In this document: positions 1,259 to 47,517 of the stretch, one piece after another
How the letters are laid out: each line of letters starts with the position of its first letter
Position numbering within the stretch: the first letter of the stretch is position 1
Origin: Bacteroidales bacterium
GTDB lineage: Bacteria; Bacteroidota; Bacteroidia; Bacteroidales; F082
Assembly: GCA_017549805.1 (NCBI GenBank)
Contig: JAFYNJ010000015.1
Coordinates: 1-64,000, forward strand
Reading direction: 5' to 3'
Length of the DNA: 64,000 nt
Made by a program: the position numbers and the translations under genes
The notes under the pieces: model-generated
Databases searched by the model: none
What the model saw: the letters and a program-made list of their open reading frames with translations, nothing else
Told to the model about the DNA's origin: nothing

Positions 1259-3394
1259 ATGAGAACAACGTTTTTACTTTTTGTTTCGGCGATCCTTTTG
1301 TGTCAATCCTGTACGCAACAGCCGATGCCTGAGGCCTCCTACGACATCATTCCTCTGCCCAAGGAGGTGACATTGAACGAGAAAAGGCCTTTTGTGCTTC
1401 AATCCAATACCGTCGTTTATTATGAAGAGGGCTTGCAACGCGAGGCGCAGTTCCTCAGCGAGTATGTGGACGACATCCTTTCGTTCAAGATGGCTTGCCA
1501 GCCGCTTCAAGGCAAGGAGAAAAACGGCATTGTGCTTCAGTTGGCGCCCGCTGAATTCGGCTTTGACGAAGCATACGAAATCACCATTACACCAAAGCAA
1601 GTGACTATCAAGGGAGCGGATGCCGCAGGCGTGTTTTACGGCATACAAACCTTGCGCAAGAGCCTTCCAATTACCAACTCCCAACTGCCAACTCCCAACT
1701 GCCAACTCCCAACTGCGGTCATCCGCGACTGGTCGGAATTTGGCTACCGCGGCATGCATCTCGATCCTTGCCGTCACTTCATGGACTTGGATTCGGTGAA
1801 GATCTATATCGACATGCTGGCCATGCACAATATGAACCAGTTCCATTTCCACCTTACGGAGGACCAAGGCTGGCGCATCGAGATTAAGAAATACCCCGAG
1901 TTGACCCAAGTCGGGGCTTATCGCAAAGGCACGGTCATCGGCCATAACAGCCCATTATACGACACCGTACGCCATGGTGGTTTCTATACCCAGGATGAGT
2001 TGCGTGACTTGGTCCAATATGCCGCCGAGCGCCATATCAACATCATTCCCGAGATCGACCTGCCAGGCCACATGCAGGCTGCCTTGGCTACCTATCCAAA
2101 GTTAGGTTGCACAGGTGGTCCATACGAGGTGTGGCGCCGTTGGGGTGTCTCTGAGGATGTGCTTTGTGCAGGCAACGAGGAGGCAATGCAATTCGTGGAG
2201 GATGTGCTGAATGAGGTAATGGATGTGTTTCCCTCTGAATACATCCACATCGGTGGGGATGAATGTCCCAAAACGAGATGGATGAAATGCCCGAAATGCC
2301 AAGCAAAAATCAAGGAATTGGGCATCAAGGGGGATGAGCGTTTCTCGAAGGAGGACTACCTGCAGAGCTATGTGATGAACTGCATGGCCAAGGTGGTGGA
2401 GGCTCGTGGCCGTCGTGTCATTGGCTGGGATGAGATCCTGGAAGGCAACGTCTCAGAAACGGCCATCATCATGAGTTGGCGTGGCACCCAAGGCGGTATC
2501 GAGGCGGCAAGGAAAGGCCATGATGTCATCATGGCACCGTCATCTCATTTGTATTTCGACTATTACCAAAGCGACGACATCTTTAACGAGCCGCCTTGCA
2601 TCGGCGGTTATTTGCCGGTGGAGCGGGTGTATGAATTCCAGCCGCTTCCCGCTGAGCTCACCCTGGCGGAGCAGAAGCATATCATCGGCGTGCAAGCCAA
2701 TATCTGGACGGAGTACATCGCCTCGTTCCAACATGTCCAGTACATGGCCATGCCGCGTATGGATGCCTTGGCGGAACTGCAATGGAACAATCCCGAGCAG
2801 CGTGATTTCCAAGCTTTTGTCGAGCGTTGCCGAAAGATGACCCAACTTTATGACTTGTATCATTACAACTACGCCAAGCACATCTTCGATCCACATCCGA
2901 AGACGGATACGGTGGTATCCAACCTGGCCACCCACAAGCCCCTTACCTTGCGTTTCCAGCCTGCCGAAAAATACACCTTTGAAGGCGCTGCGCAGCTTAA
3001 CGATGGCAAGTTGGGCCGTGGTCTTTACAACTCCGGTCGCTGGCTCGGATTCCAGGGAGATCCCCTGGATGCCGTCATTGACTTGGAACAGCCTGAGACT
3101 TTGAGCCATGTCCGTTTCCATGCCTTGGTGGACAAGCCTTCATGGATTTACAACCCGAGTGAAGTCAAAGTGCTCGTTTCCGACGATGGGAAGCGTTATC
3201 GGAGAGTGGGGCAGCAGGAAATCATGATCTCCACTTGGGCGGATCGGGATGGCATATTTAGCTATGAGTTGGAATTCGAGCCCGTTGTTGCCCGTTATGT
3301 GGAAGTCGTCATTAACGGCCATGAGTTGCCCAAGGACCATGATGGCCATGGTCATCCAGCTTGGATCTTCGTTGACGAAATCGAATTATTCTGA
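1259..3394 (+). CDS. Beta-N-acetylhexosaminidase, glycoside hydrolase family 20, probable lipoprotein
   Basis: Exo-acting enzyme that removes terminal GlcNAc/GalNAc from glycans (host or peptidoglycan-derived), expected in the periplasm or on the surface. The 711-aa product has a hydrophobic N-terminus with cysteines at 15 and 18 (imperfect lipobox, QSC). An N-terminal GH20b-like domain is followed by the catalytic barrel, with [18 protein letters not shown] and [12 protein letters not shown]; the last supplies the catalytic Asp-Glu pair at about D334-E335. A C-terminal domain from about residue 560 resembles a discoidin/F5-F8-type carbohydrate-binding module. The linker between the N-terminal domain and barrel (residues about 137-153) is encoded by a seven-unit heptanucleotide array, so an insertion was tolerated there. 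The exact substrate is unknown. Confidence 0.93.
1667..1715. repeat. Heptanucleotide array inside the hexosaminidase gene
   Basis: Seven contiguous 7-bp units: CCAATTA, then CCAACTC and CCAACTG alternating three times (14-bp higher-order period). It is translated as a Pro/Gln/Leu/Thr-rich linker. The units have no stop codon in any frame on either strand. Confidence 0.95.
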
Positions 3395-3422
3395 CTTCCG
3401 TCTTCTTTATTCTGCCTTCTTC
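3386..3422. repeat. Heptanucleotide array between convergent gene ends
   Basis: Units TTATTCT, GACTTCC, GTCTTCT, TTATTCT, GCCTTCT, with TTATTCT returning after exactly 21 bp. The array covers the last codon and stop of the hexosaminidase gene and the C-terminal codons (Lys-Lys-Ala-Glu-stop) of the convergent nuclease gene. Confidence 0.8.
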
Positions 3423-4456
3423 AAAAGAATCACATACACTGGAAAGTGGTCACTGTAGCCGCCCATCCAGACGCCTGAGCCGAAGGTGCGGAAGGGGAAT
3501 CCGTTGTAGCGGCCGCCGTGCTGTTTCAGGAATTCCTTGTTGTGCACCTTGGCGTTCTTGTACTGATAGGTGGAATAATCGGTGGGCAGCAAGCCGGGGG
3601 TGATGATGGTTTGGTCGAGCACACCGGGCACGTCATTGTAGTAGTTGGTGCCGATGCCGTTTTGGTGCAGTTCGTACATGGGGTTGAAATACTCGCCTTC
3701 ACGCAAGTGTTTTTTGTCGCCATTGGCGCCAAGATACTTGGTAATGCTCTTGTTGGTGGGGTAGTCGTTGTAGTCGCCCATCATGATGACCTTGGCGTTG
3801 GGATCGTCGGCCAGCAGCGAGTCGGTGATGTGGCGGCACAGGTTGGCGGCGGCCACACGGCCGGGAAGGGAGCGTTTCTCGCCACCGTAGCGTGAGGGCC
3901 AGTGCATCACGACAAAATGCATCGGTTCACCGTCGAAAAGACCTGAAACCAACAGCTGGTCGCGGGTGATGAAGTCGGGTTCGCCGGGCACCACCGTGCG
4001 GTACGACCTGGTGCCTGTCACCGTGAAGTACTTTGGATTGTAAAGCAATGCCACATCGACGCCACGACGGTCGGGCGACTCATAATGGATGATCTGGTAG
4101 TTGCGATCTTTGATTTCTGGCTGGACCACCAAGTCTTCCAGAACAACGCGGTTCTCTATCTCCGACACGCCCAACACTGCCACACCGTCAGGGGTGTAGT
4201 CCAATCCGATGGTTGAAATGGCGTAGGCCATATTGTGCAGTTTGGACAGGTATTTCTCGGTGTTCCACTGGTTGACGCCATTGGGGGTAAACTCCTCGTC
4301 GTTCTTGAGCGGGTCGTCAATGGTGTCGAAGAGGTTCTCCAGGTTGTAGAAACCGACGAGGCCGATCTTATAGGCTTGCTGTTCTTGGGCCTTGACAAGG
4401 TTTGCAAATAGGCAGCAAACAATGGCCAGTATGGACAAAAGGGCTGTTTTTTTCAT
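3407..4456 (-). CDS. Secreted endonuclease/exonuclease/phosphatase (EEP) family protein
   Basis: Metal-dependent phosphodiesterase of the DNase I-like EEP fold; the substrate could be nucleic acid or another phosphoester. The 349-aa form starts at the ATG at 4456 and has a clear signal peptide (MKKTALLSILAIVCCLF... ending KAQ). A longer reading from TTG at 4483 is rejected because that codon lies in the -7 element. Catalytic motifs are all present: FYNLENLFD, SEIENR (metal Glu), HWPSRYGGE, MGDYNDYP and YSDHFPV (terminal Asp-His). The protein is complete and probably periplasmic or secreted. It is divergent from, and shares an intergenic promoter region with, the TonB receptor and OB-fold lipoprotein, which suggests a joint role in using extracellular phosphoesters or nucleic acids. 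The family call is firm; the substrate is inference. Confidence 0.85.
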   Translation of the reverse strand: MKKTALLSILAIVCCLFANLVKAQEQQAYKIGLVGFYNLENLFDTIDDPLKNDEEFTPNGVNQWNTEKYLSKLHNMAYAISTIGLDYTPDGVAVLGVSEIENRVVLEDLVVQPEIKDRNYQIIHYESPDRRGVDVALLYNPKYFTVTGTRSYRTVVPGEPDFITRDQLLVSGLFDGEPMHFVVMHWPSRYGGEKRSLPGRVAAANLCRHITDSLLADDPNAKVIMMGDYNDYPTNKSITKYLGANGDKKHLREGEYFNPMYELHQNGIGTNYYNDVPGVLDQTIITPGLLPTDYSTYQYKNAKVHNKEFLKQHGGRYNGFPFRTFGSGVWMGGYSDHFPVYVILLKKAE

Positions 4457-4479
4457 TCTGAAGGTTTTTTTTTGTTTTT

Positions 4480-4488
4480 GCAAAAATA
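4480..4488 (-). promoter_or_regulatory. Promoter -7 element of the EEP nuclease gene
   Basis: Minus-strand TATTTTTGC, 24 nt before the ATG at 4456. It excludes the upstream TTG start. Confidence 0.7.
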
Positions 4489-4494
4489 AGAATT

Positions 4495-4527
4495 ATTGTG
4501 AATCAATTCGGATTTTTTTATTTTTGC
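4495..4527 (+). promoter_or_regulatory. Promoter of the TonB receptor operon
   Basis: ATTG (4495-4498) and TATTTTTGC (4519-4527) are separated by 20 bp, close to the Bacteroidetes TTTG-N19-21-TAnnTTTG arrangement. It is back to back with the nuclease promoter. Confidence 0.75.
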
Positions 4528-4560
4528 AATTTAATATAGGACTAGAGTCGAGAAATATAA

Positions 4561-7143
4561 ATGAAATATCAAAATATGAGGAAACTACTACTTTTAGCTG
4601 TGGCCGTGTTGCTTTGCGCGCGGCTTTCAGCCCAAACGGTTGACACCACGGATACCCAGATGAATGAGGTTCCCACGGTGTTACTGTTGGATTCTGATTT
4701 TGACGAGTCATCGACTTCGGTGAACGATGCCTCCACGCTGTTGCATTCCTCGCGCGACGTATTCAATTCCATTGCCGCCTACAACTTCGGATCGCTCCGT
4801 TATCGTGTTCGTGGCAACGATTCGAAATACTCCGACGTGATGATCAACGGTGTCTTGATGAACGATCCTGAGACGGGACGTCCGGTCTTCTCCAACTGGG
4901 GCGGTCTCAACGACGCTTTCCGCAACTCGGTGATTGTTGAAGGTCTGGGCCGTACCGATGCCGGTTTTGGCTCGCTCGGCGGCTTGACGGCCTATTCCAC
5001 CCGTGCCTCGCAATACCGTAAGCAGGTCTCGGTGGGCTATGCCTTCTCCAACCGTTCCTACAACCAGCGTCTGATGGCTTCCATCGGCACAGGGGAAATC
5101 GGCAAGGGTTGGTATCTGATGGCCATGGCAAGCGGACGTTATGCCAAGAAAGGTTATACCGAAGGCACCTTCTACGAGGCAGCCGGCTATTTCCTTTCTG
5201 TGGAGAAGAAGCTTAACGACGCACACAGCCTCGACTTTACCTTCTTCGGCGCTCCTTCGCAACGTGGCGGCTCGGCTCCCGTGGTGCAGGAAGCTTACGA
5301 CCTCACCGGTACCAACTACTACAACCCCAATTGGGGCTATCAAACCATCGATGCCAATGGCACCCAGGTCATCCGCAACTCGCGTGTGAGCCGTTATCAC
5401 CAGCCTTTTGCCCAGTTGACTTGGTATTGGACGCCTAGCCAAAAGACGCAGCTCACCACCTCGGCCTTCTATTTCGCCGGTCCAGGTAGCCAAACGAGTC
5501 TTGAATGGGGAGAGGCTCCCGATCCGCGTCCCGACTACTATCGCAACCTGCCTTCCTATTATCTCGGCCATGCCCATAGTACGGCTGAATACGAAGCGCA
5601 ACTGCAGGCTTGGATGGATAGAGACCCATCCGTCACCCAAATCGACTGGGACGCCCTTTATAATGCAAACCGCGGACACCTCTTCACCGTGGAGAACGCA
5701 AACGGAACGGAGGGCAATACCGTCACCGGAAAGGCTTCCAAATACATCCTTGCCGAACGTCATTACGACAAGAAGCAGATGGGTACCGCCTCTTATTTCA
5801 AGCATGAATTCCAGCCCAACCTGATCATGGCGGGTGGACTTGCCTTGAATTCTTCAAGGACTCATTATTACGAAATGGTGAACGACCTGCTCGGGGGCGA
5901 TTACTATTACGACATTAACAAGTATGCCGAGAATCTGGAGACGGATGAATGCCAGACCGACCTGAACAATCCCAACCATGTGGCTTATGTCGGCGACATC
6001 ATCAACTACAACTATTACGCTAACCGCAACAATGTTCGCTTTTGGGATCAGATCGACTATCTGGTGGGCAACTGGGACATGTATGTCGGCCTCCAGTTCT
6101 CCTTTACCCAGATCTGGCGCGAAGGCTTGTTCAAGAGTGGCGCCTTTGCTGACAATTCATACGGAAACGACAGCAAGCACAACTTCTTGGATCCTGGTAT
6201 CAAAGGTGGTGTCACCTACGCCATCAATGGCCGCAACCACATCGTGGCCAACATGACCTATATGCTTCAAGCGCCGCAGTTCCGCGACATCTATGTGTCA
6301 CCCCGTACCCGCCACACCTTGGTGGAAGACAAGCCGGGCAGCGAACGCATCAAAGCCGTCGATCTTGGCTACCAATACCGTTCTCCTGTTTTCAAGTTCC
6401 GCCTCACGGGATACTATAGCGCCTACCAAAACCTCATCTGGAATCGCAGTTTCTACTGTGAAAATGTTTATACCGGCACCTCCGAGTCGGGTAATTCCTA
6501 TAAGAGCGAGTTCGTCAACTTCATCATGACGGGCGTCAACCAAAAGAGCGTGGGTTTGGAGATGGGTGCCGAATACAAGGTGACGCCTACCATTACCTTG
6601 CAGGCTGCTGCTGCCAATGGCATCCATGTTTACAACAACAACCCGTTGTTCTCGATCTATGATGATAACAACACTATGGCCTATATCGAGAACCAGATGG
6701 CTTACCTGAAGGGCTATCACGTTTCCACCGGTCCGGAGAGTGTGGCTTCGTTGGGTATCAAGTACAACGACCCGAAGAACTGGTGGGTCAGCTTGAACGC
6801 CAACTACCTGGCCAACATGTATTTCGATGTCAATCCCTACAACCATACGGAATTCGGCATGCTGCACTATGCCGAGGGCGACATCCGCATCGAGGATGTA
6901 TTGAAACAGGATCCGATGAAGCCTGCCTTCACCCTCGATTTCTTCGCCGGCTATTCCCGCAGGTACAAGGGCTATTACGGCTTGCTCACCGTGAGCGTCA
7001 ACAACATCCTCAACAACAAGAGCACCGTGCTTTACGGGTATGACCAGTTGCGCTTCAATGCCAACGATCCCGACATGTTCCCGTCGAAGTACTCCTATAT
7101 GTACGGAACCAACTTCTTTATCAATTTGACGGTAAGGAAGTAA
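4561..7143 (+). CDS. TonB-dependent outer-membrane receptor
   Basis: Outer-membrane beta-barrel importer energised by TonB; the substrate cannot be read from sequence. The product has 860 aa. A signal peptide ends at about LSAQ (ATG at 4561, or the internal ATG at 4576). A plug domain follows (FGSLRYRVRGNDSKYSDVMINGVLMND), then a long barrel rich in alternating aromatic strands, ending in a short C-terminal strand with a basic tail. It lacks the carboxypeptidase-like N-terminal extension typical of SusC proteins, and no SusD partner follows. Instead the next gene is a large OB-fold lipoprotein 43 bp downstream, which could be its surface capture partner. Confidence 0.88.
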   Translation: MKYQNMRKLLLLAVAVLLCARLSAQTVDTTDTQMNEVPTVLLLDSDFDESSTSVNDASTLLHSSRDVFNSIAAYNFGSLRYRVRGNDSKYSDVMINGVLMNDPETGRPVFSNWGGLNDAFRNSVIVEGLGRTDAGFGSLGGLTAYSTRASQYRKQVSVGYAFSNRSYNQRLMASIGTGEIGKGWYLMAMASGRYAKKGYTEGTFYEAAGYFLSVEKKLNDAHSLDFTFFGAPSQRGGSAPVVQEAYDLTGTNYYNPNWGYQTIDANGTQVIRNSRVSRYHQPFAQLTWYWTPSQKTQLTTSAFYFAGPGSQTSLEWGEAPDPRPDYYRNLPSYYLGHAHSTAEYEAQLQAWMDRDPSVTQIDWDALYNANRGHLFTVENANGTEGNTVTGKASKYILAERHYDKKQMGTASYFKHEFQPNLIMAGGLALNSSRTHYYEMVNDLLGGDYYYDINKYAENLETDECQTDLNNPNHVAYVGDIINYNYYANRNNVRFWDQIDYLVGNWDMYVGLQFSFTQIWREGLFKSGAFADNSYGNDSKHNFLDPGIKGGVTYAINGRNHIVANMTYMLQAPQFRDIYVSPRTRHTLVEDKPGSERIKAVDLGYQYRSPVFKFRLTGYYSAYQNLIWNRSFYCENVYTGTSESGNSYKSEFVNFIMTGVNQKSVGLEMGAEYKVTPTITLQAAAANGIHVYNNNPLFSIYDDNNTMAYIENQMAYLKGYHVSTGPESVASLGIKYNDPKNWWVSLNANYLANMYFDVNPYNHTEFGMLHYAEGDIRIEDVLKQDPMKPAFTLDFFAGYSRRYKGYYGLLTVSVNNILNNKSTVLYGYDQLRFNANDPDMFPSKYSYMYGTNFFINLTVRK

Positions 7144-7171
7144 GTTGAAAATTGAAAGTTGAAAGATAATT
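7144..7171. repeat. Heptanucleotide array in the receptor-lipoprotein gap
   Basis: Units GTTGAAA, ATTGAAA, GTTGAAA, GATAATT immediately follow the receptor stop codon and precede the next start. Confidence 0.85.
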
Positions 7172-12971: not shown

Positions 12972-13352
12972 CTAATACTCCTCTTTGATCTTCTCGATCA
13001 TCCTGCGTTCTTTCTTGGTGGGGCGCCCGGCGCCGCGGTCGCGGTACTCGCCCTTGTAGGCGTGCATGAATTCGATGCGCTCGTATTCCTCTTGTGGCGT
13101 GAGGTCGGTATAGACTTCAGGAACCATCTTGGCAGGGACGCGGTTTTTGATCACGGTTTTCACCTGCACCACTTTGTGGAGTTGCTCAATCTGCACTTGG
13201 ATGACGTCGCCTTCCTTCACTTCCCGCGAAGGCTTCACAGGGGTGTCGCTGATCTTCACCTTGCCACCCTTGATGGCATCGGTGGCAATGGCGCGGGTCT
13301 TGAAGAGCCTTGCAGCCCACAGCCATTTATCGATTCTAACGTTTTCTTCCAT
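12972..13352 (-). CDS. S4-domain RNA-binding protein, Hsp15-like
   Basis: A 126-aa protein with an N-terminal S4 domain (VRIDKWLWAARLFKTRAIATDAIKGGKV) and a basic C-terminal helix (GRPTKKERRMIEKIKEEY), the Hsp15/HslR architecture. E. coli Hsp15 binds stalled 50S subunits carrying a nascent chain, and the related RqcP acts in ribosome quality control. Either role is possible here. It lies 21 bp downstream of der on the same strand, with the gap filled by a GGTGAGA/GGTGAAA heptamer array, so it is probably translated from the der transcript. Confidence 0.85.
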   Translation of the reverse strand: MEENVRIDKWLWAARLFKTRAIATDAIKGGKVKISDTPVKPSREVKEGDVIQVQIEQLHKVVQVKTVIKNRVPAKMVPEVYTDLTPQEEYERIEFMHAYKGEYRDRGAGRPTKKERRMIEKIKEEY

Positions 13353-13353
13353 C

Positions 13354-13374
13354 TCTCACCTTTCACCTCTCACC
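13354..13374. repeat. Heptanucleotide array between der and the S4-domain gene
   Basis: Three units, TCTCACC, TTTCACC, TCTCACC (GGTGAGA type on the minus strand), fill the whole gap and touch the der stop codon. Confidence 0.85.
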
Positions 13375-14681
13375 TATTTCTCTTTAAAGATCATCTGAAT
13401 CGGCACTCCCGAGAAGTCCCAATTCTCGCGGATCTTATTCTCCAAGAAGCGTTCGTATGACTCTTTCACGTCCTTGGGAAGGTTGCAGAAGAAGATGAAT
13501 TGCGGGAAGACGCTCTTCAGCTGGGTGATGTACTTGATGCGCACGTAACGGCCGCGCGAAGCAGTCGGAGGCGGCACGGAGCCGATGATCTCCAGCATCA
13601 CGTCGTTGAGTTCGCGAACAGGGATGCGGCGCTCGCGGTTTTCATACACTTGATGGGCAGTTTCCAGCACCTTGTAAATGCGCTGCTTGTTGATGGCAGA
13701 GGTGAAGATGATGGGATAGTCGGTAAACGGAGCGGTCTTGGCGCGGATGGCCTGCTCGAAAGCAAGGTGAGTGTTGGAATCCTTCTCGATGAGGTCCCAT
13801 TTGTTGACGACAACCACCAAGCCCTTGCGGTTTTTCTCGATAAGGCGGAGGATGTTCATGTCCTGTGCCTCGAAGCCTTGTTGGGCGTCAATCATCAGGA
13901 TGGCCACGTCGCAGTTTTCGATGGCGCGGATGGAACGCATCACAGAGTAGAACTCAATGTCTTCTGAGACCTTGCTCTTCTTACGCAGTCCGGCGGTGTC
14001 CACCAGCATGAAATCCATGCCGAAGGCATTGTAGCGGGTGTCGTTGCTGTCGCGGGTGGTGCCAGCGATGTCGGTGACGATATGGCGGTCGGTGCCGAGG
14101 AAGGCGTTGATCAAGGAGGACTTGCCCACGTTGGGGCGTCCCACCACGGTAAACCGAGGAAGTTCGGTGTCGAAGTCGGTGGTGTCGCTGGGCAGCAGTT
14201 CACATACTTTGTCCAATAGGTCGCCGGTGCCAGTGCCCGTCATGGCCGACATGGGATAGGGCTCACCCAGTCCCAAGGCATAGAACTCGCCGGCAAGGAT
14301 TTCCTTGTTGGGCTCGTCGATCTTGTTGACGGCGAGGAGCACGGGTTTTTTCTGCTGGCGCAGGATGACGGCCACATCTTCGTCGAGCACATGGAGTCCA
14401 GCCCGGCCATCTACCACGAAGACGATGACATCGGCCTCGTCGATGGCAAGGTCCACTTGCTTGCGAATCTCTTCCTCGAAGATGTCGTCCGACCCGACCA
14501 CATAGCCGCCGGTGTCGATCACGGTGAATTCCTTCCCGTTCCAGTCGCTCTTGCCGTAATGGCGGTCACGCGTCACGCCGCTGGTCTCTTCAACGATGGC
14601 CTGGCGCTGCTTCAGCATCCTATTAAATAAGGTCGATTTGCCCACATTGGGGCGGCCTACGATTGCTACGATGTTTGACAT
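13374..14681 (-). CDS. der: Ribosome-assembly GTPase Der (EngA)
   Basis: Tandem-GTPase protein required for maturation of the 50S subunit. At 435 aa it has the usual length. Two complete GTPase domains are visible: GRPNVGKST / DTGG / NKID in the first, and GRPNVGKSS / DTAG / NKWD in the second (starting near residue 175). A C-terminal KH-like domain follows, ending [11 protein letters not shown]. It has its own -7 element upstream. It is one of two ribosome-assembly GTPase genes on this strand, with era 0.7 kb upstream. Confidence 0.97.
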
Positions 14682-19010: not shown

Positions 19011-19370
19011 ATGATCGAACTGAATGAAAATTTCACCGTTGCCGATCTCGCCAACGTGAAGAAAGAGGTCTTCGACCCCATGTTTAACAAAACCCGTGCT
19101 TCCTCTTGGAACGGACACATGTACATCACCCCTGACAAGATGTATTACATTGTAGAGCCTGCAGGCTTGGAAGGCAAAACCGTTTGGGATATGGGCGGTG
19201 CTCCGAAGTCGTGGTGCATCGACTTGAGCGAAATCGCGTCATACGGCAAGTATGGCTTGGGCGGTTTCAAGATTGAATTGAAAGACGGAACAACGCTCCG
19301 CTTCACCAACGTGTTCCGCAAGATGCGCAACGGCATCACGGAAGCCCTTGAGGAGAGAATGGGAAAGTGA
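19011..19370 (+). CDS. Small PH/GRAM-like protein of unknown function
   Basis: A 119-aa cytoplasmic product with no signal peptide. The pattern of short strands followed by a C-terminal helix (LSEIASYGKYGLGGFKIELKDGTTLRFTNV then FRKMRNGITEALEE) resembles a PH/GRAM-like fold, but I do not recognise the family. It follows the antiporter gene closely. Its TGA stop is the first base pair of a long hairpin made of heptamer units. Confidence 0.65.
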   Translation: MIELNENFTVADLANVKKEVFDPMFNKTRASSWNGHMYITPDKMYYIVEPAGLEGKTVWDMGGAPKSWCIDLSEIASYGKYGLGGFKIELKDGTTLRFTNVFRKMRNGITEALEERMGK

Positions 19371-19445
19371 AACGGAAAACGGAAAGTGGAAAACGGAAAA
19401 CTATCAATTCTCAGTTTTCCGTTTTCAGTTTTCAGTTCTCCGTTT
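19370..19445. repeat. Inverted pair of heptanucleotide arrays forming a hairpin between convergent stop codons
   Basis: The left arm (19370-19402, CGGAAAA-type units) and the right arm (19413-19445, TTTTCCG/TTTTCAG units) are complementary at 28 of 33 positions around a 10-nt loop. The hairpin begins in the stop codon of the PH-like gene and ends in the stop codon of the opposing kinase/deaminase gene. It probably works as a bidirectional terminator. Confidence 0.85.
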
Positions 19446-20472: not shown

Positions 20473-20475
20473 ATC

Positions 20476-20524
20476 TCTAAACTTTAAACTCTAAACTCTA
20501 AACTCTCACCTTTCACCTTTCACC
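20476..20524. repeat. Heptanucleotide array between the LOG and kinase/deaminase genes
   Basis: Seven units in perfect phase: TCTAAAC, TTTAAAC, TCTAAAC, TCTAAAC, TCTCACC, TTTCACC, TTTCACC. Two unit types abut. On the coding (minus) strand the GGTGAAA units encode the last residues of the LOG protein (Val-Lys-Gly-Glu-Arg) and its TGA. Confidence 0.97.
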
Positions 20525-21105
20525 TGTTCCTTAATCTCCACCACCCATTTCTTCACATCAGTTGGCTGGAACCGTTCCATCATTTCAAGCAATTCCTTTG
20601 GATTGTCGCTGACGATGAGGTTGTAGGCGTGTTCTTTGCGGATGAAGCCTTCCTTGGCGGCATGGTCGATGAAGCGGATGATGTCGTCGTAAAAGCCGTT
20701 CACGTTGTAGAGGGCCACGGGTTTGTCGAAGACCCGCAGCTGGCTGAGCACAAAGGCCTCGAAGAATTCGTCCATGGTGCCCAGTCCGCCTGGCATGGCA
20801 ATGAAGCCGTCTGCCATGTCTTCCAAAATCTTCTTGCGTTCAGCCATCGAATCCACCACAATCAGCTCGTCAATGTCGTTATAGCCCACTTCCATGTCCA
20901 TGAGGTGCTCGGTGATGGTGCCGATGACCTTGCATTTCCGGTCCATCATCACATCGGCGATGATTTTCATCAGCCCCACACTGCCACCGCCGTACAATAG
21001 CTCGCACTGCTTGTCGGCCATGGCTTGACCGAGTTCAGCGGCTTTCTCGCGATAAATAGGGTCGAAGCCCATGCTGCTGCCGCAAAAAATGCAGATTTTC
21101 TTCAT
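20506..21105 (-). CDS. LOG-family (TIGR00730) protein, cytokinin-riboside phosphoribohydrolase type
   Basis: A 199-aa Rossmann-like protein with the family signatures IFCGSSMGFDPIY at the N-terminus and MPGGLGTMDEFFE near residue 105 (PGGxGTxxE motif). LOG enzymes hydrolyse nucleoside 5'-monophosphates or cytokinin riboside monophosphates to base plus ribose 5-phosphate; in gut bacteria a general nucleotide hydrolase role is more plausible. The last six residues are encoded by heptamer units, so the native C-terminus has been replaced or extended. Confidence 0.88.
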   Translation of the reverse strand: MKKICIFCGSSMGFDPIYREKAAELGQAMADKQCELLYGGGSVGLMKIIADVMMDRKCKVIGTITEHLMDMEVGYNDIDELIVVDSMAERKKILEDMADGFIAMPGGLGTMDEFFEAFVLSQLRVFDKPVALYNVNGFYDDIIRFIDHAAKEGFIRKEHAYNLIVSDNPKELLEMMERFQPTDVKKWVVEIKEQVKGER

Positions 21106-23778: not shown

Positions 23779-23783
23779 AACAC

Positions 23784-23824
23784 TTTTATCTTTTATCTCT
23801 TATCTTTTACCTTTTTATCTTATC
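23784..23824. repeat. Heptanucleotide array in the manA promoter region
   Basis: Units TTTTATC, TTTTATC, TCTTATC, TTTTACC, one 8-bp TTTTTATC, then a partial unit that runs into the manA -7 element TATCTTTGC. Confidence 0.85.
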
Positions 23825-23829
23825 TTTGC
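23821..23829 (+). promoter_or_regulatory. Promoter -7 element of manA
   Basis: TATCTTTGC, 22 nt before the ATG at 23852. Its first half is formed by the last heptamer unit. Confidence 0.75.
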
Positions 23830-23851: not shown

Positions 23852-24838
23852 ATGTCAACCGTACTTTACCCACTGAAATTCAAGCCCATCTTCAAGGATA
23901 AGATCTGGGGCGGACGCAAGATCAAGGAAGTGCTTGGGGTGGACTATGGTCCGCTGCCCAACTGTGGTGAGGCTTGGCTGCTCTCGGGTCTCTGGGACGA
24001 ACAAAGTGTGATTGCCAACGGCGACTTCGAAGGCGATGAGATCAACGATCTCGTGGAGACCTTCATGGGCGACCTCGTGGGCGAAGGGGTGTTCGACAAA
24101 TACGGCGAACAGTTTCCGCTGCTCATCAAGATCATCGATGCCAACGATTGGCTCTCGGTGCAGGTGCATCCTGACGATGAGCTGGCCGAGAAGCGTGAGA
24201 TCGGCAACGGCAAGACCGAGATGTGGTATGTGATGCAAGCCGACCGGGGTGCCGAGCTCGTTTCGGGTTTCAACTGCGAGATGAATCGCATGAAATACAT
24301 CCGCGTGCTCAAGGACAATGCCATCGAATCGGTGCTGAATCATGAGACGGCCGAAAAGGGCGATGTGTTCTACATCCCCGCCGGACGCGTCCATGCGCTC
24401 GGTCCTGGCATCATGGTGGCAGAGATCCAGCAGACCAGCGACACCACCTACCGCATCTACGACTGGGACCGCATCGACCTGGCCGGCATGCGCCGCGAGT
24501 TGCACATCCCACAGTCGCTGGATGCCGTCGATTTTGATCCTGTCGAGAACTACAAGTCGCCTTATGAGGATGTCATAAACAAGACCGTCCCCGTGGTGGA
24601 TTCACCCTATTTCACCACCAACCTGCTGCATCTCAACGGCGAGATGGCCAAGGACTATTCGGAGCTCGATTCCTTTGTGCTGTTGATGCCCGTTGAAGGA
24701 AAATTTTTGCTTGAATGGGAAAATGGCTCGGTATTTGTTAATACGGGTGAAGTTGTCTTGATCCCAAATGTCATCGAAAAGGTGAACATCAAGGCACAGG
24801 GCGACTGCAAACTCCTTGAAGTTTATAACGATATTTAA
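23852..24838 (+). CDS. manA: Mannose-6-phosphate isomerase, type I
   Basis: Zinc enzyme that interconverts mannose 6-phosphate and fructose 6-phosphate, feeding GDP-mannose synthesis or mannose catabolism. The 328-aa protein is of the shorter Bacteroidetes/Firmicutes type. The metal and active-site region reads WLSVQVHPDDELAEKREIGNGKTEMWYV, with Gln, His and Glu ligands; the C-terminal cupin supplies the remaining histidine (YIPAGRVHALGPG). It may supply mannose units to the DPM1-like transferase at 10.5 kb, though the genes are not linked. Downstream gene spacing is 36 bp across a heptamer array. Confidence 0.92.
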   Translation: MSTVLYPLKFKPIFKDKIWGGRKIKEVLGVDYGPLPNCGEAWLLSGLWDEQSVIANGDFEGDEINDLVETFMGDLVGEGVFDKYGEQFPLLIKIIDANDWLSVQVHPDDELAEKREIGNGKTEMWYVMQADRGAELVSGFNCEMNRMKYIRVLKDNAIESVLNHETAEKGDVFYIPAGRVHALGPGIMVAEIQQTSDTTYRIYDWDRIDLAGMRRELHIPQSLDAVDFDPVENYKSPYEDVINKTVPVVDSPYFTTNLLHLNGEMAKDYSELDSFVLLMPVEGKFLLEWENGSVFVNTGEVVLIPNVIEKVNIKAQGDCKLLEVYNDI

Positions 24839-24840
24839 TT

Positions 24841-24875
24841 GATAATTAATAATTTAGAATTAATAATACTGAAAA
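24841..24875. repeat. Heptanucleotide array between manA and the TlpA-like gene
   Basis: AT-rich units GATAATT, AATAATT, TAGAATT, AATAATA, CTGAAAA fill the gap from just after the manA stop to the ATG at 24875. They are more degenerate than other arrays. Confidence 0.6.
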
Positions 24876-25369
24876 TGAAAAAGCTATTCACTCTCTTATT
24901 CGCTGTGCTGATGATTACAGGTGTTCAGGCCCAGCAGAAATCGGACCTTCCGAATGTTACCATCAAGAATTTGCAAGGCAAGGATGTCAACATCGCCAAG
25001 CTGTCGAACAATGGCAAGCCTTTCGTGATCACCTTCTGGGCCACCTGGTGCGGTCCATGCATCAAGGAACACAATGCCTTGGACGAGGTTTATGCCGACT
25101 GGAAGGCTGAAACTGGCGTGAAGATCTATTCCGTCTCAATCGACGACTCACGTTCCACTGCCAAGGTGAAGCCTTTCGTCGAGGGCAAGGGCTGGGATTT
25201 CGAAGTCCTGCTGGATGTCAACAAGGATCTGGCTCGCGCCATGAACGTGAACAACCCGCCCTATACCTTCCTGTTTGATGGCAATGGTAAGTTGGTCTAT
25301 CAGCATTCGGGCTATTTCGAAGGCGCAGAGAACGATCTTTACGAGGAAATCCTAAAGATAAAGAAGTAA
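24875..25369 (+). CDS. TlpA-type thioredoxin-fold protein, exported
   Basis: A 164-aa protein with a signal peptide (MKKLFTLLFAVLMITGVQAQ) and a TlpA/ResA-like thioredoxin domain with the redox motif WATWCGPC (cysteines near 58 and 61) and the cis-proline region NNPPYTFLF. Such proteins reduce or exchange disulfides in the periplasm. It is the first gene of an apparent operon with a DUF6029 barrel and an Omp28-family lipoprotein, both of which carry paired cysteines, so it may keep them reduced. A heptamer array occupies its upstream gap and another its downstream gap. Confidence 0.85.
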   Translation: MKKLFTLLFAVLMITGVQAQQKSDLPNVTIKNLQGKDVNIAKLSNNGKPFVITFWATWCGPCIKEHNALDEVYADWKAETGVKIYSVSIDDSRSTAKVKPFVEGKGWDFEVLLDVNKDLARAMNVNNPPYTFLFDGNGKLVYQHSGYFEGAENDLYEEILKIKK

Positions 25370-25397
25370 GAGGTCAGGAGACAGAAGATAGAAGCAA
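25363..25397. repeat. Heptanucleotide array after the TlpA-like gene
   Basis: Five units in phase: GAAGTAA (last codons and stop), GAGGTCA, GGAGACA, GAAGATA, GAAGCAA. It lies immediately before the DUF6029 gene. Confidence 0.85.
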
Positions 25398-27952: not shown

Positions 27953-27954
27953 TA

Positions 27955-27989
27955 GTTTAGAGTTTAGGGTTTAGAGTTTAGAGTTGTTT
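27955..27989. repeat. Heptanucleotide array between Omp28-like gene and trmO
   Basis: Units GTTTAGA, GTTTAGG, GTTTAGA, GTTTAGA, GTTGTTT. Read on the minus strand it encodes the last residues of TrmO (Leu-Asn-Ser-Lys-Pro) and the TAA stop. Confidence 0.93.
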
Positions 27990-29368: not shown

Positions 29369-29779
29369 ATGAAAAAAATATTCGTCTTATTGATAATGAT
29401 GTTCGCTGTGGCGTTGGTCCCGGCGAAGGCACAAATTGGTGGAATTATCGGAAGAGCCGTCCAAAAAGGTGTTGAAAAAGCCGTCCAGAAAGAAGCGGAC
29501 AAACAGGCAGAGAAAATCTCTCAGACGATCGAAAACGAAATAGAGAAGGCGGCTGAAAAGCAGGCAGCCAAGCTCGATTCCATCAACCAGGCGGCCAAAG
29601 AGGCCAACGATGCCTTGAATGAGGAGCAGGAACGTCTCGAAGCTGAGCAGGAAGCTGCCAAGGACAAGAACGCTGGCAAGAAAGGCTCGGGAACTGTTGA
29701 CACTTCGAAATACGATGCCATCAATGCCGAACGCAAGGCAGCGAATGCCAAACTCAATTACGATAGATGGGATTATTAA
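29369..29779 (+). CDS. Small exported Ala/Glu/Lys-rich coiled-coil protein
   Basis: A 136-aa product with a signal peptide (MKKIFVLLIMMFAVALVPAKAQ). The rest is a nearly continuous charged helix rich in Ala, Glu and Lys with heptad character from about residue 30 to 100, then a Gly/Lys spacer and an aromatic end (RWDY). It recalls short periplasmic coiled-coil spacers, but I recognise no family. It probably shares a transcript with the preceding gene. Its stop codon overlaps the stop of the convergent aspartate kinase gene by three bases inside a heptamer array. Confidence 0.6.
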   Translation: MKKIFVLLIMMFAVALVPAKAQIGGIIGRAVQKGVEKAVQKEADKQAEKISQTIENEIEKAAEKQAAKLDSINQAAKEANDALNEEQERLEAEQEAAKDKNAGKKGSGTVDTSKYDAINAERKAANAKLNYDRWDY

Positions 29780-29803
29780 CTGCCAACTACAAACTGTAAA
29801 GTG
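29776..29803. repeat. Heptanucleotide array at convergent gene ends
   Basis: Units TTAACTG, CCAACTA, CAAACTG, TAAAGTG. On the minus strand they encode the C-terminal residues Leu-Gln-Phe-Val-Val-Gly-Ser and stop of aspartate kinase. Confidence 0.8.
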
Positions 29804-34602: not shown

Positions 34603-34635
34603 ATCACTCTAAACTCTAAACATTAAACTTTAAAC
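34601..34635. repeat. Heptanucleotide array between the two POT genes
   Basis: Units AAATCAC, TCTAAAC, TCTAAAC, ATTAAAC, TTTAAAC fill the gap from the stop codon to 2 nt before the ATG at 34638. Confidence 0.9.
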
Positions 34636-34637
34636 TA

Positions 34638-38103: not shown

Positions 38104-38589
38104 ATGTCAAGAAACGAACAAGAACTGAAAGGCGTTACATTGCTGGGAAACCAGAATACCCAGTATCGTTACGATTACACGCCCGAGGTGCTGGAGACCT
38201 TTGAAAACAAGCATCCCGAGAACGACTATCTGGTGACGCTGGACTGTCCGGAGTTCACCTCGCTGTGCCCCAAGACGGGCCAACCCGACTTTGGACACAT
38301 CATCATCAACTATATTCCGCGCACATTGATGGTGGAGAGCAAGAGCCTGAAACTTTATCTTTTTAGTTTCCGCAACCATGGCGACTTCCACGAAGATTGT
38401 GTGAACATCATCATGAAGGACTTGGTCAAGCTGATGGATCCTAAATACCTGGAGGTCATTGGCCTGTTCAATCCCCGTGGAGGTATTTCAATAAAGCCTT
38501 TTGCCAACTACGGCGATAAGGAACATCAAGACATGGTGAAACAACGTTTAATTGAACAACTGAATAACTCCCAACTTCAAACTAAATGA
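38104..38589 (+). CDS. queF: NADPH-dependent 7-cyano-7-deazaguanine reductase QueF
   Basis: Reduces preQ0 to preQ1 in queuosine synthesis. The 161-aa protein starts at ATG 38104, downstream of the -7 element (a longer frame from 38056 would begin before the promoter). It is of the short unimodular type, with the catalytic Cys in [19 protein letters not shown] and the E(S/T)[18 protein letters not shown] motif. Its last codons are formed by a degenerate heptamer array (Asn-Ser-Gln-Leu-Gln-Thr-Lys). Its TGA overlaps the queC ATG by 4 bp. Confidence 0.96.
38557..38584. repeat. Heptanucleotide array at the end of queF
   Basis: Four AACT cores (at 38558, 38566, 38573 and 38580) spaced 8, 7 and 7 bp, in units such as ATAACTC, CCAACTT, CAAACTA. 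They encode the last residues of QueF and reach the queC start. Confidence 0.65.
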
Positions 38590-39245
38590 AGGATGCAGTA
38601 ATCATCATATCCGGAGGCATGGATTCCACCACCATGTTGTATGAATACCAAGATGAGATTGCCTTGGCCATTACCTTCGACTATGGCTCCACTCAGAATG
38701 GTCGTGAGCGTATCTGTGCCATCACGCATTGCCAACGATTGGGCATCAAGCACATTGTCATCCCGCTGGAATTCATGCATCGCTATTTCAAGAGTGCTTT
38801 GTTGGGTGATCCCGAAGATATTCCGGAAGGTAATTATGATGATGAGAGTATGAAATCAACGGTGGTACCTTTTCGCAACGGCATTATGTTGGCCATTGCC
38901 GCGGGTATCGCCGAGAGCAACGGTTTGAAACGGGTGATGATTGCCAACCATGCCGGTGACCATTCCATCTATCCCGACTGTCGTCCAAGCTTTGTCAATG
39001 CGATGTCGGAAGCCATGTCGGCAGGGACGTATGAGAATATCACGGTGTGGGCACCCTACACTTATCTAAGCAAAAAGGAAATCGCCGAGCATGGAAAAGC
39101 CTTGGGCCTGGACTATAGCGAGACTTATTCCTGCTATAAAGGTGGCGAGAAGCATTGCGGTAAATGTGGTACCTGCCGCGAACGCATCCAAGCCCTGAAG
39201 GACGCAGGCATTGTGGATACCACTGAATATGAAACGGAAAACTGA
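38586..39245 (+). CDS. queC: 7-cyano-7-deazaguanine synthase QueC
   Basis: ATP-dependent enzyme that converts carboxy-deazaguanine to preQ0. The 219-aa protein has the PP-loop [13 protein letters not shown] (residues about 8-20), the conserved [16 protein letters not shown] and the zinc-binding cysteines [18 protein letters not shown] near the C-terminus. It overlaps queF by 4 bp. The last codons (Glu-Asn-stop) lie in a GAAAACT array that separates it from queD. Confidence 0.96.
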
Positions 39246-39273
39246 AAACTGAACAACTGACTAACTTCCAACT
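39237..39273. repeat. Heptanucleotide array between queC and queD
   Basis: Two perfect GAAAACT units at 39237-39250 (AACT cores 7 bp apart), then AACT cores at 39255, 39263 and 39270 spaced 8, 8 and 7 bp. The array contains the queC stop codon. Confidence 0.75.
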
Positions 39274-40207: not shown

Positions 40208-40947
40208 CCTCTCTGTCTTCTGAATTCTGTCTTCTGACTTCTATAAACAAGAAACACCGCCGGTTTCTTGTTCAGATCCCCTTTGAACGACTTCCACTCC
40301 CCGATGCTTTGGCTGACGATGAGCTCGTCGTCGCAGGTGAGGTTGCACGCGACGCAGAGCAGGGTGGAGGGGTGCAGGTTCTTGCACAGGTCCTGCAACA
40401 TGGCGTTGTTGCGGAAAGGCGTCTCGATGAAGAGCTCTGTCTCGTTGTTGGCTGCCGACCTGCGTTCCAAGTCCTTGATGGCGTTTTGCCGTTCGGGGCT
40501 CTTGATGGGTAGGTAGCCGTGGAAAGCGAAGGCCTGTCCGTTGAACCCCGAGGCCATCAAGGCTAAGATCATGGCGTTGGGGCCCACCAACGGGATGACT
40601 TGGATGCCGGCCGAGTGGGCCAGATCGACCACTAAGGCTCCTGGGTCGGCCACGCAAGGCGTTCCGGCTTCCGACATCAAGCCCATGTCTTCTCCGTTGA
40701 GGCAGGCACCGAGGTGTTCCATCAGGTCGAGGTTATGGGCATTGTGCTTGTCAAGCTCGATGAACTCGATCTCGTCGATGGCACAATCCATGCCGATGCG
40801 GCTCAGCACGCGGCGTGAGGTTCGGGTGTTCTCCACCACGAAATGCTTCAACTTCTTGATGATGGTCAAAGTGCCTTCAGGCAGCACCTGCTCGGGCTTT
40901 GTCGCTCCCAACAGATTGGGTACCAGATAGAGTTTTCCGAAAGGCAT
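40204..40947 (-). CDS. RsmI-family SAM-dependent methyltransferase
   Basis: Tetrapyrrole-methylase-fold protein related to RsmI, which methylates C1402 of 16S rRNA. The 247-aa protein has LYLVPNLLG, LMSEAGTPCVADPG, LVGPNAMILALMASGFNG and ETPFRNNAML. It is shorter than E. coli RsmI and may be the second Bacteroidetes paralogue of unknown target, so I give no symbol. The C-terminal tail after FLVYR (Ser-Gln-Lys-Thr-Glu-Phe-Arg-Arg-Gln-Arg-Gly) is entirely encoded by a heptamer array and replaces the normal end. It lies 6 bp downstream of dnaA. Confidence 0.85.
   Translation of the reverse strand: MPFGKLYLVPNLLGATKPEQVLPEGTLTIIKKLKHFVVENTRTSRRVLSRIGMDCAIDEIEFIELDKHNAHNLDLMEHLGACLNGEDMGLMSEAGTPCVADPGALVVDLAHSAGIQVIPLVGPNAMILALMASGFNGQAFAFHGYLPIKSPERQNAIKDLERRSAANNETELFIETPFRNNAMLQDLCKNLHPSTLLCVACNLTCDDELIVSQSIGEWKSFKGDLNKKPAVFLVYRSQKTEFRRQRG
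40213..40240. repeat. Heptanucleotide array encoding the methylase C-terminus
   Basis: Units CTGTCTT, CTGAATT, CTGTCTT, CTGACTT in perfect phase. On the minus strand they encode the last eleven residues of the RsmI-family protein. Confidence 0.93.
40246..40272. terminator. Perfect 10-bp inverted repeat just past queE (possible terminator)
   Basis: AACAAGAAAC pairs with GTTTCTTGTT around a 7-nt loop, 39 nt after the queE stop, within the 3' coding part of the convergent methylase gene. There is no T run, so termination is uncertain; the symmetry may come from its Lys-Lys / Phe-Leu codons. Confidence 0.35.
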
Positions 40948-44022: not shown

Positions 44023-44031
44023 GCAAAGATA
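44023..44031 (-). promoter_or_regulatory. Promoter -7 element of the DMT transporter gene
   Basis: Minus-strand TATCTTTGC, only 5 nt from the ATG at 44017. The transcript probably begins at or next to the start codon. Confidence 0.65.
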
Positions 44032-44040
44032 AAAATTTTA

Positions 44041-44068
44041 GAAGTCAGTAGTCAGAAGAAAGAAGTAT
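44041..44068. repeat. Heptanucleotide array upstream of prmC
   Basis: Units GAAGTCA, GTAGTCA, GAAGAAA, GAAGTAT. The last unit contributes the first bases of the prmC -7 element. Confidence 0.8.
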
Positions 44069-44074
44069 TTTTGC
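44066..44074 (+). promoter_or_regulatory. Promoter -7 element of prmC, leaderless arrangement
   Basis: TATTTTTGC ends 3 nt before the prmC ATG (44078), so transcription should begin at or inside the start codon. Confidence 0.65.
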
Positions 44075-44077
44075 AGG

Positions 44078-47452: not shown

Positions 47453-47471
47453 GATTGCTTTGAAATGTAGC

Positions 47472-47480
47472 GCAAAAATA
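47472..47480 (-). promoter_or_regulatory. Promoter -7 element of the S8 protease gene
   Basis: Minus-strand TATTTTTGC, 20 nt before the ATG at 47452. Confidence 0.7.
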
Positions 47481-47489
47481 AGAAACACC

Positions 47490-47517
47490 TTTCAATTTTC
47501 ACCTTTCAATTTTCATT
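47490..47517. repeat. Heptanucleotide array between the protease and rnpB promoters
   Basis: Units TTTCAAT, TTTCACC, TTTCAAT, TTTCATT (14-bp higher-order period), placed between two divergent -7 elements. Confidence 0.9.

What the first reader, a model, noticed from the sequence alone, without database searches (positions are those of the whole stretch)
1667..47517. A dispersed family of 17 tandem arrays with a strict 7-bp period
Seventeen arrays of two to nine units were read directly (1667, 3386, 7144, 13354, 19370, 20476, 23784, 24841, 25363, 27955, 29776, 34601, 38557, 39237, 40213, 44041, 47490). The period is 7 bp with rare 8-bp slips. Units differ between arrays (CCAACTG, GTTTAGA, GGTGAAA, GAAAACT, CTGTCTT, TTTTATC) but are alike within each. 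One strand is purine-rich, the other pyrimidine-rich. Two unit types can abut in one array (20476-20524), and some show a 14-bp higher order. Heptanucleotide tandem repeats (STRR) are known from cyanobacteria; I know of no described Bacteroidales counterpart. Such regular period with changing sequence suggests a copying process that preserves length, not sequence. No array is seen in the last 16 kb of the window.
Basis: partly seen in the sequence, partly recalled or inferred. Interest (0 to 1): 0.78.

Follow-up and report, generated by a model that had tools for sequence, protein, structure and literature searches.

The report
Dispersed 32-base heptamer repeat elements
Short DNA segments built from a 7-letter word repeated about four and a half times are scattered through this gut bacterium, some as identical copies between unrelated genes, which suggests that something copies them around the genome rather than each one simply stuttering into being where it lies.

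Summary
All 17 arrays are there, each at p <= 0.014. In 1.25 Mb of this genome lag 7 gives 99 segments, against 8 at lag 8 and 0 at lag 6.

Slippage alone does not explain them. Array lengths peak at 32 bp, and arrays fall into word families with a fixed order of variant units. One exact 32-mer was found 46 times, in 34 groups by flank homology, in at least seven species, with 12 distinct loci here and none for its reversed control. Of these 46, 37 lie purine strand sense at the stop codon of an upstream ORF and 14 end exactly at an ATG. Orthologous slots carry different words in different species, also inside the repair protein Mfd.

Best reading: a dispersed modular element copied in trans, altered by slippage and kept in tolerant slots. 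The copying agent is unknown. Heptamer repeats are known from Xanthomonas, Nostoc, Beggiatoaceae and some Bacteroidetes, so this is a new variant of a known kind. A similar four-unit preference was explained in Xanthomonas by G-quadruplexes; here it occurs without G-tracts.

The parts
1667..1714 (-). array CCAACTC/CCAACTG, in frame inside GH20 hexosaminidase ORF 1259-3394 (linker before the catalytic domain)
   Evidence: orthologues G033, G078, G061 have other CAACTNN words there, G013 and G022 none
3389..3420 (-). array TTCTGACTTC..., convergent gap at a stop codon
   Evidence: same type in G033 and G078
7142..7165 (+). array AAGTTGA after the stop of 4561-7143, before 7187
   Evidence: G033, G078, G061, G022 have other words at this slot, G013 none (by eye)
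13350..13375 (-). array CTCACCT (purine strand AGAGGTG) at the end of an EngA/Der-type GTPase gene
   Evidence: other words in G033, G078, G022 (by eye)
19370..19445 (.). head-to-head inverted pair of AAAACGG/AAAACTG arrays between convergent genes; predicted hairpin
   Evidence: RNA fold -33.2 kcal/mol, z -6.0; absent in G033, other word in G078
20475..20525 (-). two word types in one phase (AAAGGTG then AGAGTTT)
   Evidence: G022 has AAAACGG/AAAACTG here, G033/G078 AAAGGTT
23783..23815 (-). member of the AAAAGAT 32-mer family (2 mismatches to the exact element at 23781-23812), next to TATCTTTGC promoter-like sequence
   Evidence: orthologues keep four units but AAC/CAC in place of ATC
24836..24867 (+). 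array TAATTAA/TAATTGA between co-oriented genes
   Evidence: many of 27 congeneric loci have other words in this gap (by eye)
25361..25394 (+). (AGAAGNN)n array between stop and ATG
   Evidence: G078 alike, no array by eye in G033, G013, G061, G022
27954..27985 (+). 32-bp AGTTTAGAGTTTAGGGTTTAGAGTTTAGAGTT element, convergent gap
   Evidence: absent in G078 and G061
29778..29803 (-). array AACTGCC/AACTACA, convergent gap
   Evidence: G078 has an inverted AGGAGTT/AGGAGTG pair here
34606..34636 (-). array ACTCTAA (purine strand AGAGTTT) ending next to ATG 34638
38566..38583 (+). weak array AACTCCC/AACTTCA before ATG of queC 38586
   Evidence: p 0.014; queC
39232..39253 (+). array AAACTGA/AAACGGA overlapping the end of queC
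40212..40242 (-). array TCTGTCT/TCTGAAT, convergent gap
44040..44065 (+). array AGAAGTC/AGTAGTC before ATG 44078
47490..47520 (-). array TTTCAATTTTCACC, upstream of the subtilase gene, beside RNase P RNA
   Evidence: RNase P RNA 47538-47910

Best explanation
The arrays are, in large part, copies of dispersed, modular elements of about 32 bp: a purine-rich heptamer (most often of the form RRRRNTN) repeated four and a half times. (1) Shown for the AAAAGAT family and supported statistically for arrays as a whole: elements recur, with the order of their variant units, at unrelated loci without shared flanks, so copying in trans has happened. (2) Shown by comparison: unit number also changes locally (slippage). 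(3) Shown: copies lie mainly at gene ends (stop codon to next ATG, convergent 3' ends) and, in frame, inside some proteins, and are rare in divergent gaps. (4) Shown: at one slot different species carry different words. (5) Inferred: new copies arise when an existing array donates sequence by template switching or ectopic gene conversion (perhaps through a short single strand) to another array or to a short chance match at a gene junction; the shared 7-bp period and RRRRNTN frame would make arrays mutually alignable, which would spread words through a genome and give each species its vocabulary. (6) Inferred: they persist because single elements are unstructured, A/G-rich and supply stop codons, which suits intercistronic leaders in a phylum that lacks Shine-Dalgarno sequences; head-to-head pairs in convergent gaps may act as terminator hairpins.
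For: Lag 7 and its multiples dominate. Length mode 32 bp, 58 of 133 arrays at 30-34 bp; geometric lengths rejected at p 9e-18 on the 127 arrays of 22 bp or more. 24 distinct dominant words among 79 arrays, collision rate 0.059 against at most 0.010 in four nulls of 300 draws. 37 unlinked pairs among 130 arrays share an exact non-periodic 28-mer, against mean 11 and maximum 24 in 200 unit-order shuffles; also above the maximum at 20, 22, 24 and 26 bp. Exact AGATAAAAGATAAGAGATAAAAGATAAAAGTT: 14 places here (12 with distinct flanks), 11 in G078, 9 in G033, 8 in G022, 4 in G035, 1 each in G060 and G062 among the places listed, none in the reversed control; 46 copies in 34 flank groups. 37 of 46 at a sense stop codon against 4 antisense; 27 of 46 with a sense ATG within 39 nt against 8 antisense; 14 directly abutting (caveat in the Against line). 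Densities 2.04, 1.05 and 0.20 per kb in convergent, co-directional and divergent gaps. Word replacement at slots; in-frame linkers of Mfd. Unit-number differences at 95-97% identity (by eye). Close pairs: 9 of 10 head-to-head plus 3 self-inverted segments, none tail-to-tail. The exact element's RNA has no predicted structure.
Against: No copying enzyme or intermediate was found. Many arrays belong to no exact family: of seven 32-bp sequences tried in the 1.25 Mb sample only the AAAAGAT and AAAACGG ones had 3 or more exact copies (6 and 3), the others 1 or 2, and the AGAGTTG one is not clearly distinguished from its reversed control (11 against 6 at <= 3 mismatches). The stop-codon comparison is not symmetrical: the purine strand of the element carries four TAA, the other strand no stop, and in 18 of the 37 the stop is one of these (offsets 6 and 13); the 46 copies include orthologues and are not independent. 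Clean empty/filled pairs are few: the nearly empty G033 version of gap 19370 may be a loss, and the one whole-array swap seen between close genomes (G033/G078) lies at a boundary between blocks of 95.6% and 90.2% identity, so import by recombination is possible. At 23783 the word changed in all units while the odd third unit stayed, which fits local conversion as well as trans copying. Arrays within 2 kb of each other share the dominant word hardly more often than others (3 of 45 against 5.4%). No expression data.
Confidence: 0.6

Rival explanations
1. Purely local replication slippage with a 7-nt step (size of the DNA segment held by the polymerase), too long a loop for mismatch repair, tolerated where constraint is weak. 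No copying between loci.
For: Unit-number changes; period 7 in unrelated words across genera; rarity in divergent gaps; proposed for heptamers by Mrazek et al. 2007 as cited in PMC4679880 and PMC4692102. That large loops escape bacterial mismatch repair is recalled.
Against: Identical composite 32-mers in 34 flank groups; few words shared by many arrays; shared unit order beyond 200 shuffles; unimodal lengths at 32 bp. Loss of MutS is not the cause here: this genome has a strong MutS_V match (2.9e-83) and all 60 genomes searched have some match.
Confidence: 0.12
2. Functional sites kept by selection: RNA- or DNA-binding sites for one or more proteins (translation, termination or message stability), with sequence identity between loci enforced by the binding partner.
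For: Sense-strand bias 60 to 28, p 8e-4, and ATG 27 to 8 for the exact element; position between stop and ATG; head-to-head pairs, one shown to fold well; MacGregor 2015 proposes a post-transcriptional regulator for TAACTGA repeats.
Against: Many words in one genome and replacement of words at one slot; the AAAAGAT element absent (<= 2 mismatches) from 47 of 60 genomes of the genus; presence on both strands and inside coding sequence. Functions of the flanking genes were not examined systematically. Selection alone does not explain how the same 32-mer first arose at so many loci.
Confidence: 0.2
3. Transposition of the elements by a single-strand transposase such as the REP-associated tyrosine transposase (RAYT) found in this genome.
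For: A Y1 transposase gene lies at L024:18951-19496 (Pfam Y1_Tnp 28.0 bits over cut-off 23; NCBIfam REP_Tyr_transpos 62.5 bits, below its cut-off of 80), flanked by copies of a palindrome; palindromic inserts occupy the same slots in other species (by eye).
Against: The single heptamer element has no hairpin, whereas RAYTs are known to act on REP palindromes (recalled); the palindrome beside the gene is unrelated in sequence to the heptamers. Association with array load was not tested.
Confidence: 0.08
4. Telomerase-like synthesis by a reverse transcriptase from a short RNA template of about one and a half repeats.
For: A preferred length of 4 + 4x7 bp with several words.
Against: Array-rich congeners G010, G026 and G062 (316, 269 and 242 pattern matches; completeness 84, 91 and 99) have no RVT_1 match; only 32 of 60 genomes have one.
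Confidence: 0.03

Closest known systems
G-rich heptamer repeats GGGANTN of Xanthomonas and GGGGA(C/T)T of Nostoc (Rehm et al. 2015, PMC4692102; abstract start, passages and sections 10 and 16 read)
   Same: 7-bp unit of the RRRRNTN form; 186 and 183 dispersed loci; preference for four units; 70 and 75 inverted pairs; few in divergent gaps, some intragenic; between the same genes in two species but with length and sequence variation
   Different: One G-rich word there, four-unit preference linked to quadruplexes. Here many words, 0 of 130 arrays with four GGG runs, exact dispersed 32-mers, and stop-to-ATG placement
TAACTGA direct repeats of Beggiatoaceae, Cyanobacteria and five Bacteroidetes (MacGregor 2015, PMC4679880; abstract, passages and sections 7 and 24 read)
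   Different: A single word, doublets commonest; here a vocabulary with a 32-bp mode
Heptanucleotide repeats of Calothrix (STRR; seen only as a citation inside PMC4692102, the name STRR recalled)
   Same: Tandem heptamers in several words per genome
   Different: Sizes and positions not compared here
Surveys of short repeats: PMC12699852 (passages) and PMC6749651 (passages)
   Same: Repeats with 6-9 bp units enriched in prokaryotic phyla and high repeat density in Bacteroidota; bacterial satellite families derived from heptamers, e.g. GATAGRA in Chloroflexus
   Different: No element structure, no copying between loci in the passages seen
Tandem repeats of archaeal Borgs (PMC9879509; abstract start and passages read)
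   Same: Fast-evolving, genome-specific, both intergenic and in ORFs, A-rich
   Different: Units in ORFs divisible by three, varied unit lengths, perfect units
REP elements with RAYT transposases (PMC2817692; search listing only)
   Same: Short dispersed repeats, single or in alternating orientation
   Different: Palindromic; the heptamer elements are not

Membership tests
Bacterial heptanucleotide tandem repeats (STRR / heptameric SSR) | Unit of 7 bp in tandem, dispersed over the chromosome | tested here: met
   lag 7 and multiples dominate, all 14 contigs sampled carry arrays
Bacterial heptanucleotide tandem repeats (STRR / heptameric SSR) | Mostly intergenic, depleted between divergent genes | tested here: met
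   98 of 121 arrays in gaps, of these 5 in divergent gaps; 21 coding, 2 other
Bacterial heptanucleotide tandem repeats (STRR / heptameric SSR) | One or few fixed words per genome | tested here: inconclusive
   24 dominant words in 79 arrays, related in form
G-quadruplex heptamers (Xanthomonas/Nostoc type) | Four G-tracts per array | tested here: not met
   0 of 130 arrays
REP/BIME elements | Imperfect palindrome in each element | tested here: not met
   exact element folds with 0 kcal/mol; hairpins only where two arrays lie head-to-head
REP/BIME elements | RAYT transposase in the genome | tested here: inconclusive
   L024:18951-19496 matches Y1_Tnp over cut-off but REP_Tyr_transpos below cut-off; it lies beside its own palindromes, and a link to heptamers was not tested
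Telomerase/RT-templated repeats | Reverse transcriptase in every array-rich genome | tested here: not met
   G010, G026, G062 lack RVT_1; MAGs, so absence is not certain
Phase-variable contingency repeats | Unit-number change between strains that switches a gene | not testable with these tools
   no strain-level genomes or reads; the C30/C8 overlap is an assembly duplicate

The most novel reading that the evidence does not exclude
A class of minimal self-propagating elements: 32-bp heptamer modules that are written as units into stop-to-start junctions by a dedicated, still unidentified DNA-copying activity, the same that makes the four-unit heptamer arrays of Xanthomonas and Nostoc, with the word free to change while length, period and RRRRNTN frame are fixed.
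Probability: 0.25. Interest if true: 0.87.

Novelty: new variant of a known kind. Interest (0 to 1): 0.64.

Why it matters
Heptamer repeats in bacteria have been put down to polymerase slippage or, where G-rich, to quadruplexes. Here a similar length preference appears in words without G-tracts, and identical 32-mers lie at unrelated loci, so a copying step between loci has to be explained. The genus gives a ready test bed: array load differs more than forty-fold between genomes (8 to 375 matches of one pattern; other words would be missed), and slots can be followed gene by gene. Many elements occupy the region just upstream of start codons in a phylum whose messages lack Shine-Dalgarno sequences, and some lengthen linkers of housekeeping proteins.

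Tried and rejected
Local slippage alone: not sufficient because of the exact dispersed 32-mers. G-quadruplex: 0 of 130 arrays have four GGG runs. Reverse transcriptase: RVT_1 not found in several array-rich genomes. Loss of MutS: all 60 genomes have MutS_V matches, though in a few only the weaker paralogues or fragments were found. Known RNA family: Rfam gives only tRNA and RNase P in the window. Phage carriage: exact 32-mer absent from viral contigs (one scan). Strain comparison inside the bin: C30 and C8 overlap almost perfectly over 20 kb and identically over a further 5 kb, an assembly duplicate without information; that part of C30 was cut off. A remaining 2.9 kb shared by C1 and C5 was found only at the end and stays in those counts. 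I first counted identical 4-mers at both ends of 32-bp arrays as evidence for the reverse-transcriptase idea (15 of 17); this follows from 32 = 4 + 28 in any perfect array and is dropped.

Paper searches for a Bacteroidales heptamer family or similar short elements (lists capped at 3 to 20 rows, and 82 was swamped) showed MacGregor 2015 and Rehm 2015 as the close works; within PMC5771137 (Porphyromonas repeats) the words heptamer, heptanucleotide and '7 bp' do not occur. Most subscription papers, including Mrazek 2007, are not held, so this is no proof that nothing else is in print.

First Mfd extraction missed loci on the other strand and was redone. Searches were script errors. Gene calls were cruder or on less sequence; one search repeats the context counts on the larger sample.
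Full report
Setting. The window is contig C16 of a 2.73-Mb metagenome-assembled genome in 33 contigs, completeness 100, contamination 7.58. The nearest named relatives found with one window protein (a phosphomannose-isomerase match) are Bacteroidales MAGs, many from ruminants; one, at 72% identity, is Candidatus Limimorpha equi, so the genus is probably Candidatus Limimorpha (inference).

Observation. In 464 kb the count of lag-matched segments is 50 at lag 7, 28 at lag 14, 7 at lag 8 and at most 5 at any other lag from 2 to 40, with none at any lag in one local shuffle. In 1,247,459 bp (one known overlap removed; 2.9 kb shared by C1 and C5 remains) it is 99 at lag 7, 48 at lag 14, 15 at lag 21 and 8 at lag 8. 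All 14 contigs sampled carry arrays, 0.75 to 3.2 per 20 kb at score 13 (109 in all), which would make about 240 per genome (extrapolation).

Where they lie. Of 121 arrays at score 12 or more, 68 lie between co-directional genes, 25 between convergent, 5 between divergent, 21 inside called genes and 2 elsewhere; densities in gaps are 1.05, 2.04 and 0.20 per kb (chi-square p 3e-7). The purine strand is the sense strand in 60 and antisense in 28 (p 8e-4; relative to the nearest gene in convergent gaps; 5 mixed arrays not counted; divergent gaps not scored). In 48 of 68 co-directional cases the array overlaps the end of the upstream gene (all). Gene calls are my own hexamer-based ones. Close pairs of arrays are head-to-head in 9 of 10 cases, and 3 further segments are themselves purine array plus pyrimidine array; the pair at 19370-19445 folds at -33.2 kcal/mol, z -6.0.

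Inside proteins. The array at 1667-1714 is in frame in a GH20 gene. Eight further array-bearing ORFs were scanned and match TRCF (Mfd), class I tRNA synthetase, aminotransferase class V, S41 peptidase, ApbE, biotin carboxylase and two oxidoreductase-type families. For Mfd the 30 best loci (this genome and 29 congeners) were compared: none of the linker regions has a stop; 12 of 30 show a lag-7 array (score 9 or more) with different words; 8 have a 138-nt linker without arrays; several carry palindromic inserts at the same places by eye (DNA also). A further congener, G070, has one stop somewhere in its Mfd match.

Not just slippage. Array lengths are unimodal with mode 32 bp: 58 of 133 at 30-34 bp, 12 at 19-24, 25 at 25-29, 22 at 35-39, 14 at 40 or more, 2 at 18; a geometric model is rejected. 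In 60 arrays from loci outside the genus the peak is weaker (12 at 30-34, 15 at 25-29, 14 at 40 or more). Among 79 arrays in 864 kb the dominant words number only 24 (four nulls 59 or more), and 75% fit RRRRNTN against 44% for letter shuffles (maximum 56%). Unlinked arrays share exact non-periodic composites more often than unit-order shuffles allow: 37 pairs at 28 bp against mean 11, maximum 24 (130 arrays); the margin over the maximum is small at 24 bp (82 against 75). Of 68 26-mers found at three or more unlinked places in the sample, 30 are heptamer arrays, including the two commonest.

The exact element. AGATAAAAGATAAGAGATAAAAGATAAAAGTT was sought in 60 genomes of the genus, this one included, with up to 2 mismatches: 13 have it; here 28 places, G022 56, G033 30, G078 22, G035 20, with 0 for the reversed control in all 60 (the list of places is capped, so exact copies may exist in more than the seven species seen). 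With flanks, 46 exact copies fall into 34 groups by flank homology; the 14 places in this genome are 12 distinct loci, since C30:70923 repeats C8 and C13:27367 repeats C14. Some copies are orthologous, mainly between G078 and G033. On the purine strand 37 of 46 have an upstream ORF ending within -12 to +13 of the element's first base, against 4 on the other strand. This comparison is not symmetrical, since only the purine strand carries stops (four TAA): in 18 of the 37 the element's own TAA ends the ORF, in 8 the stop straddles the junction, in 11 it lies before it. 27 have a downstream ORF starting at an ATG within 39 nt against 8 on the other strand, 14 of them directly at the element's end. 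The single element has no predicted RNA structure. Other families have the same length and plan, for example AGAAGNN and AACGGAA types; of seven family sequences tested, six had no match to their reversed control at up to 3 mismatches and the AGAGTTG one had 6.

Turnover at slots. At the C14 junction the DNA between stop and ATG is 32 bp (here), 32 (G060, word AGTGAAA), 32 (G078), 25 (G061), 18 (G013, ACGGAAA), 30 (G074), 37 (G010), 39 (G004), 45 (G008, AAATCTT), and inserts without heptamers of 148 (G033) and 96 (G022). Two other junctions were compared in the same call, by eye: at C30 most congeners carry other heptamer words, at C17 only some have an array. Gap 7137 carries AAAGTTG, AGAAGAC, AATTTAG or AAAAGAT words in five species and no array in G013. 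At gap 23783 four units are kept in five species while the word changes and the odd third unit stays in four of the five. Of 119 array sites tried, 19 had a mapped orthologue, giving 53 comparisons: 4 same word, 25 one or two letters different, 6 different word, 18 no array (some genomes appear twice through overlapping loci, so these are not independent). Between G033 and G078, 52 gaps were compared; several differ by whole units at 95-97% identity by eye, and one array is wholly different at a boundary of blocks of unequal identity.

Distribution. Array load, counted with four RRRRNTN units, runs from 8 (G025) to 375 (G033) in 60 genomes (overlapping matches counted, other words missed, completeness varies). 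Lag-7 arrays (score 13) occur in 16 of 27 loci from the genus and 13 of 53 more distant loci, with other words in the latter.

Reading. Copying in trans is the step that the data most strongly call for; the agent is not identified. Reverse transcriptase, MutS loss, viral carriage and quadruplexes found no support. A RAYT-like gene is present, but beside unrelated palindromes. Ectopic template switching or conversion between arrays, followed by slippage and retention in tolerant or favourable slots, is my preferred mechanism, by inference. The leader-like position fits work on Flavobacterium johnsoniae, where unstructured sequence and upstream adenines (-3, -6, -12, -13) favour initiation (PMC6847099, passages): the exact element with an abutting ATG has A at -6, -12 and -13 but G at -3, which that work found unfavourable in one of its tests.

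Limits. All genomes compared within the genus are draft assemblies without reads; gene calls are mine; most statistics rest on about half of one genome; slot comparisons marked 'by eye' were not scored by program.

Noticed in passing
L024:18951-19496 (- strand), G000 contig C20: RAYT-like gene flanked on both sides by the palindrome GTAGAGACGTGCCATGGCGCGTCTCTAC, with a similar stretch also in frame inside the gene itself.
   Followed up: partly
Mfd linkers in G033, G008, G060, G073, G016 and C14 slot in G033, G022: Palindromic, REP-like inserts sit in the same slots as heptamer arrays, in frame in Mfd; in G073 one appears nested in a heptamer stretch (by eye).
   Followed up: no
G000 C30 end versus C8 start; C13 versus C14; C1 versus C5: Contig pairs of this assembly overlap with identical sequence (20 kb and 5 kb checked for C30/C8, flanks of one element for C13/C14, about 2.9 kb for C1/C5), which may contribute to the 7.58% contamination figure.
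   Followed up: partly
window 47538-47910: RNase P RNA (class A) directly beside the array at 47490-47520.
   Followed up: no
window 23821-23829: TATCTTTGC, a Bacteroidetes -7-like promoter sequence (consensus recalled), lies next to the array; a similar sequence is kept in many congeners whether or not they have the array (by eye).
   Followed up: no
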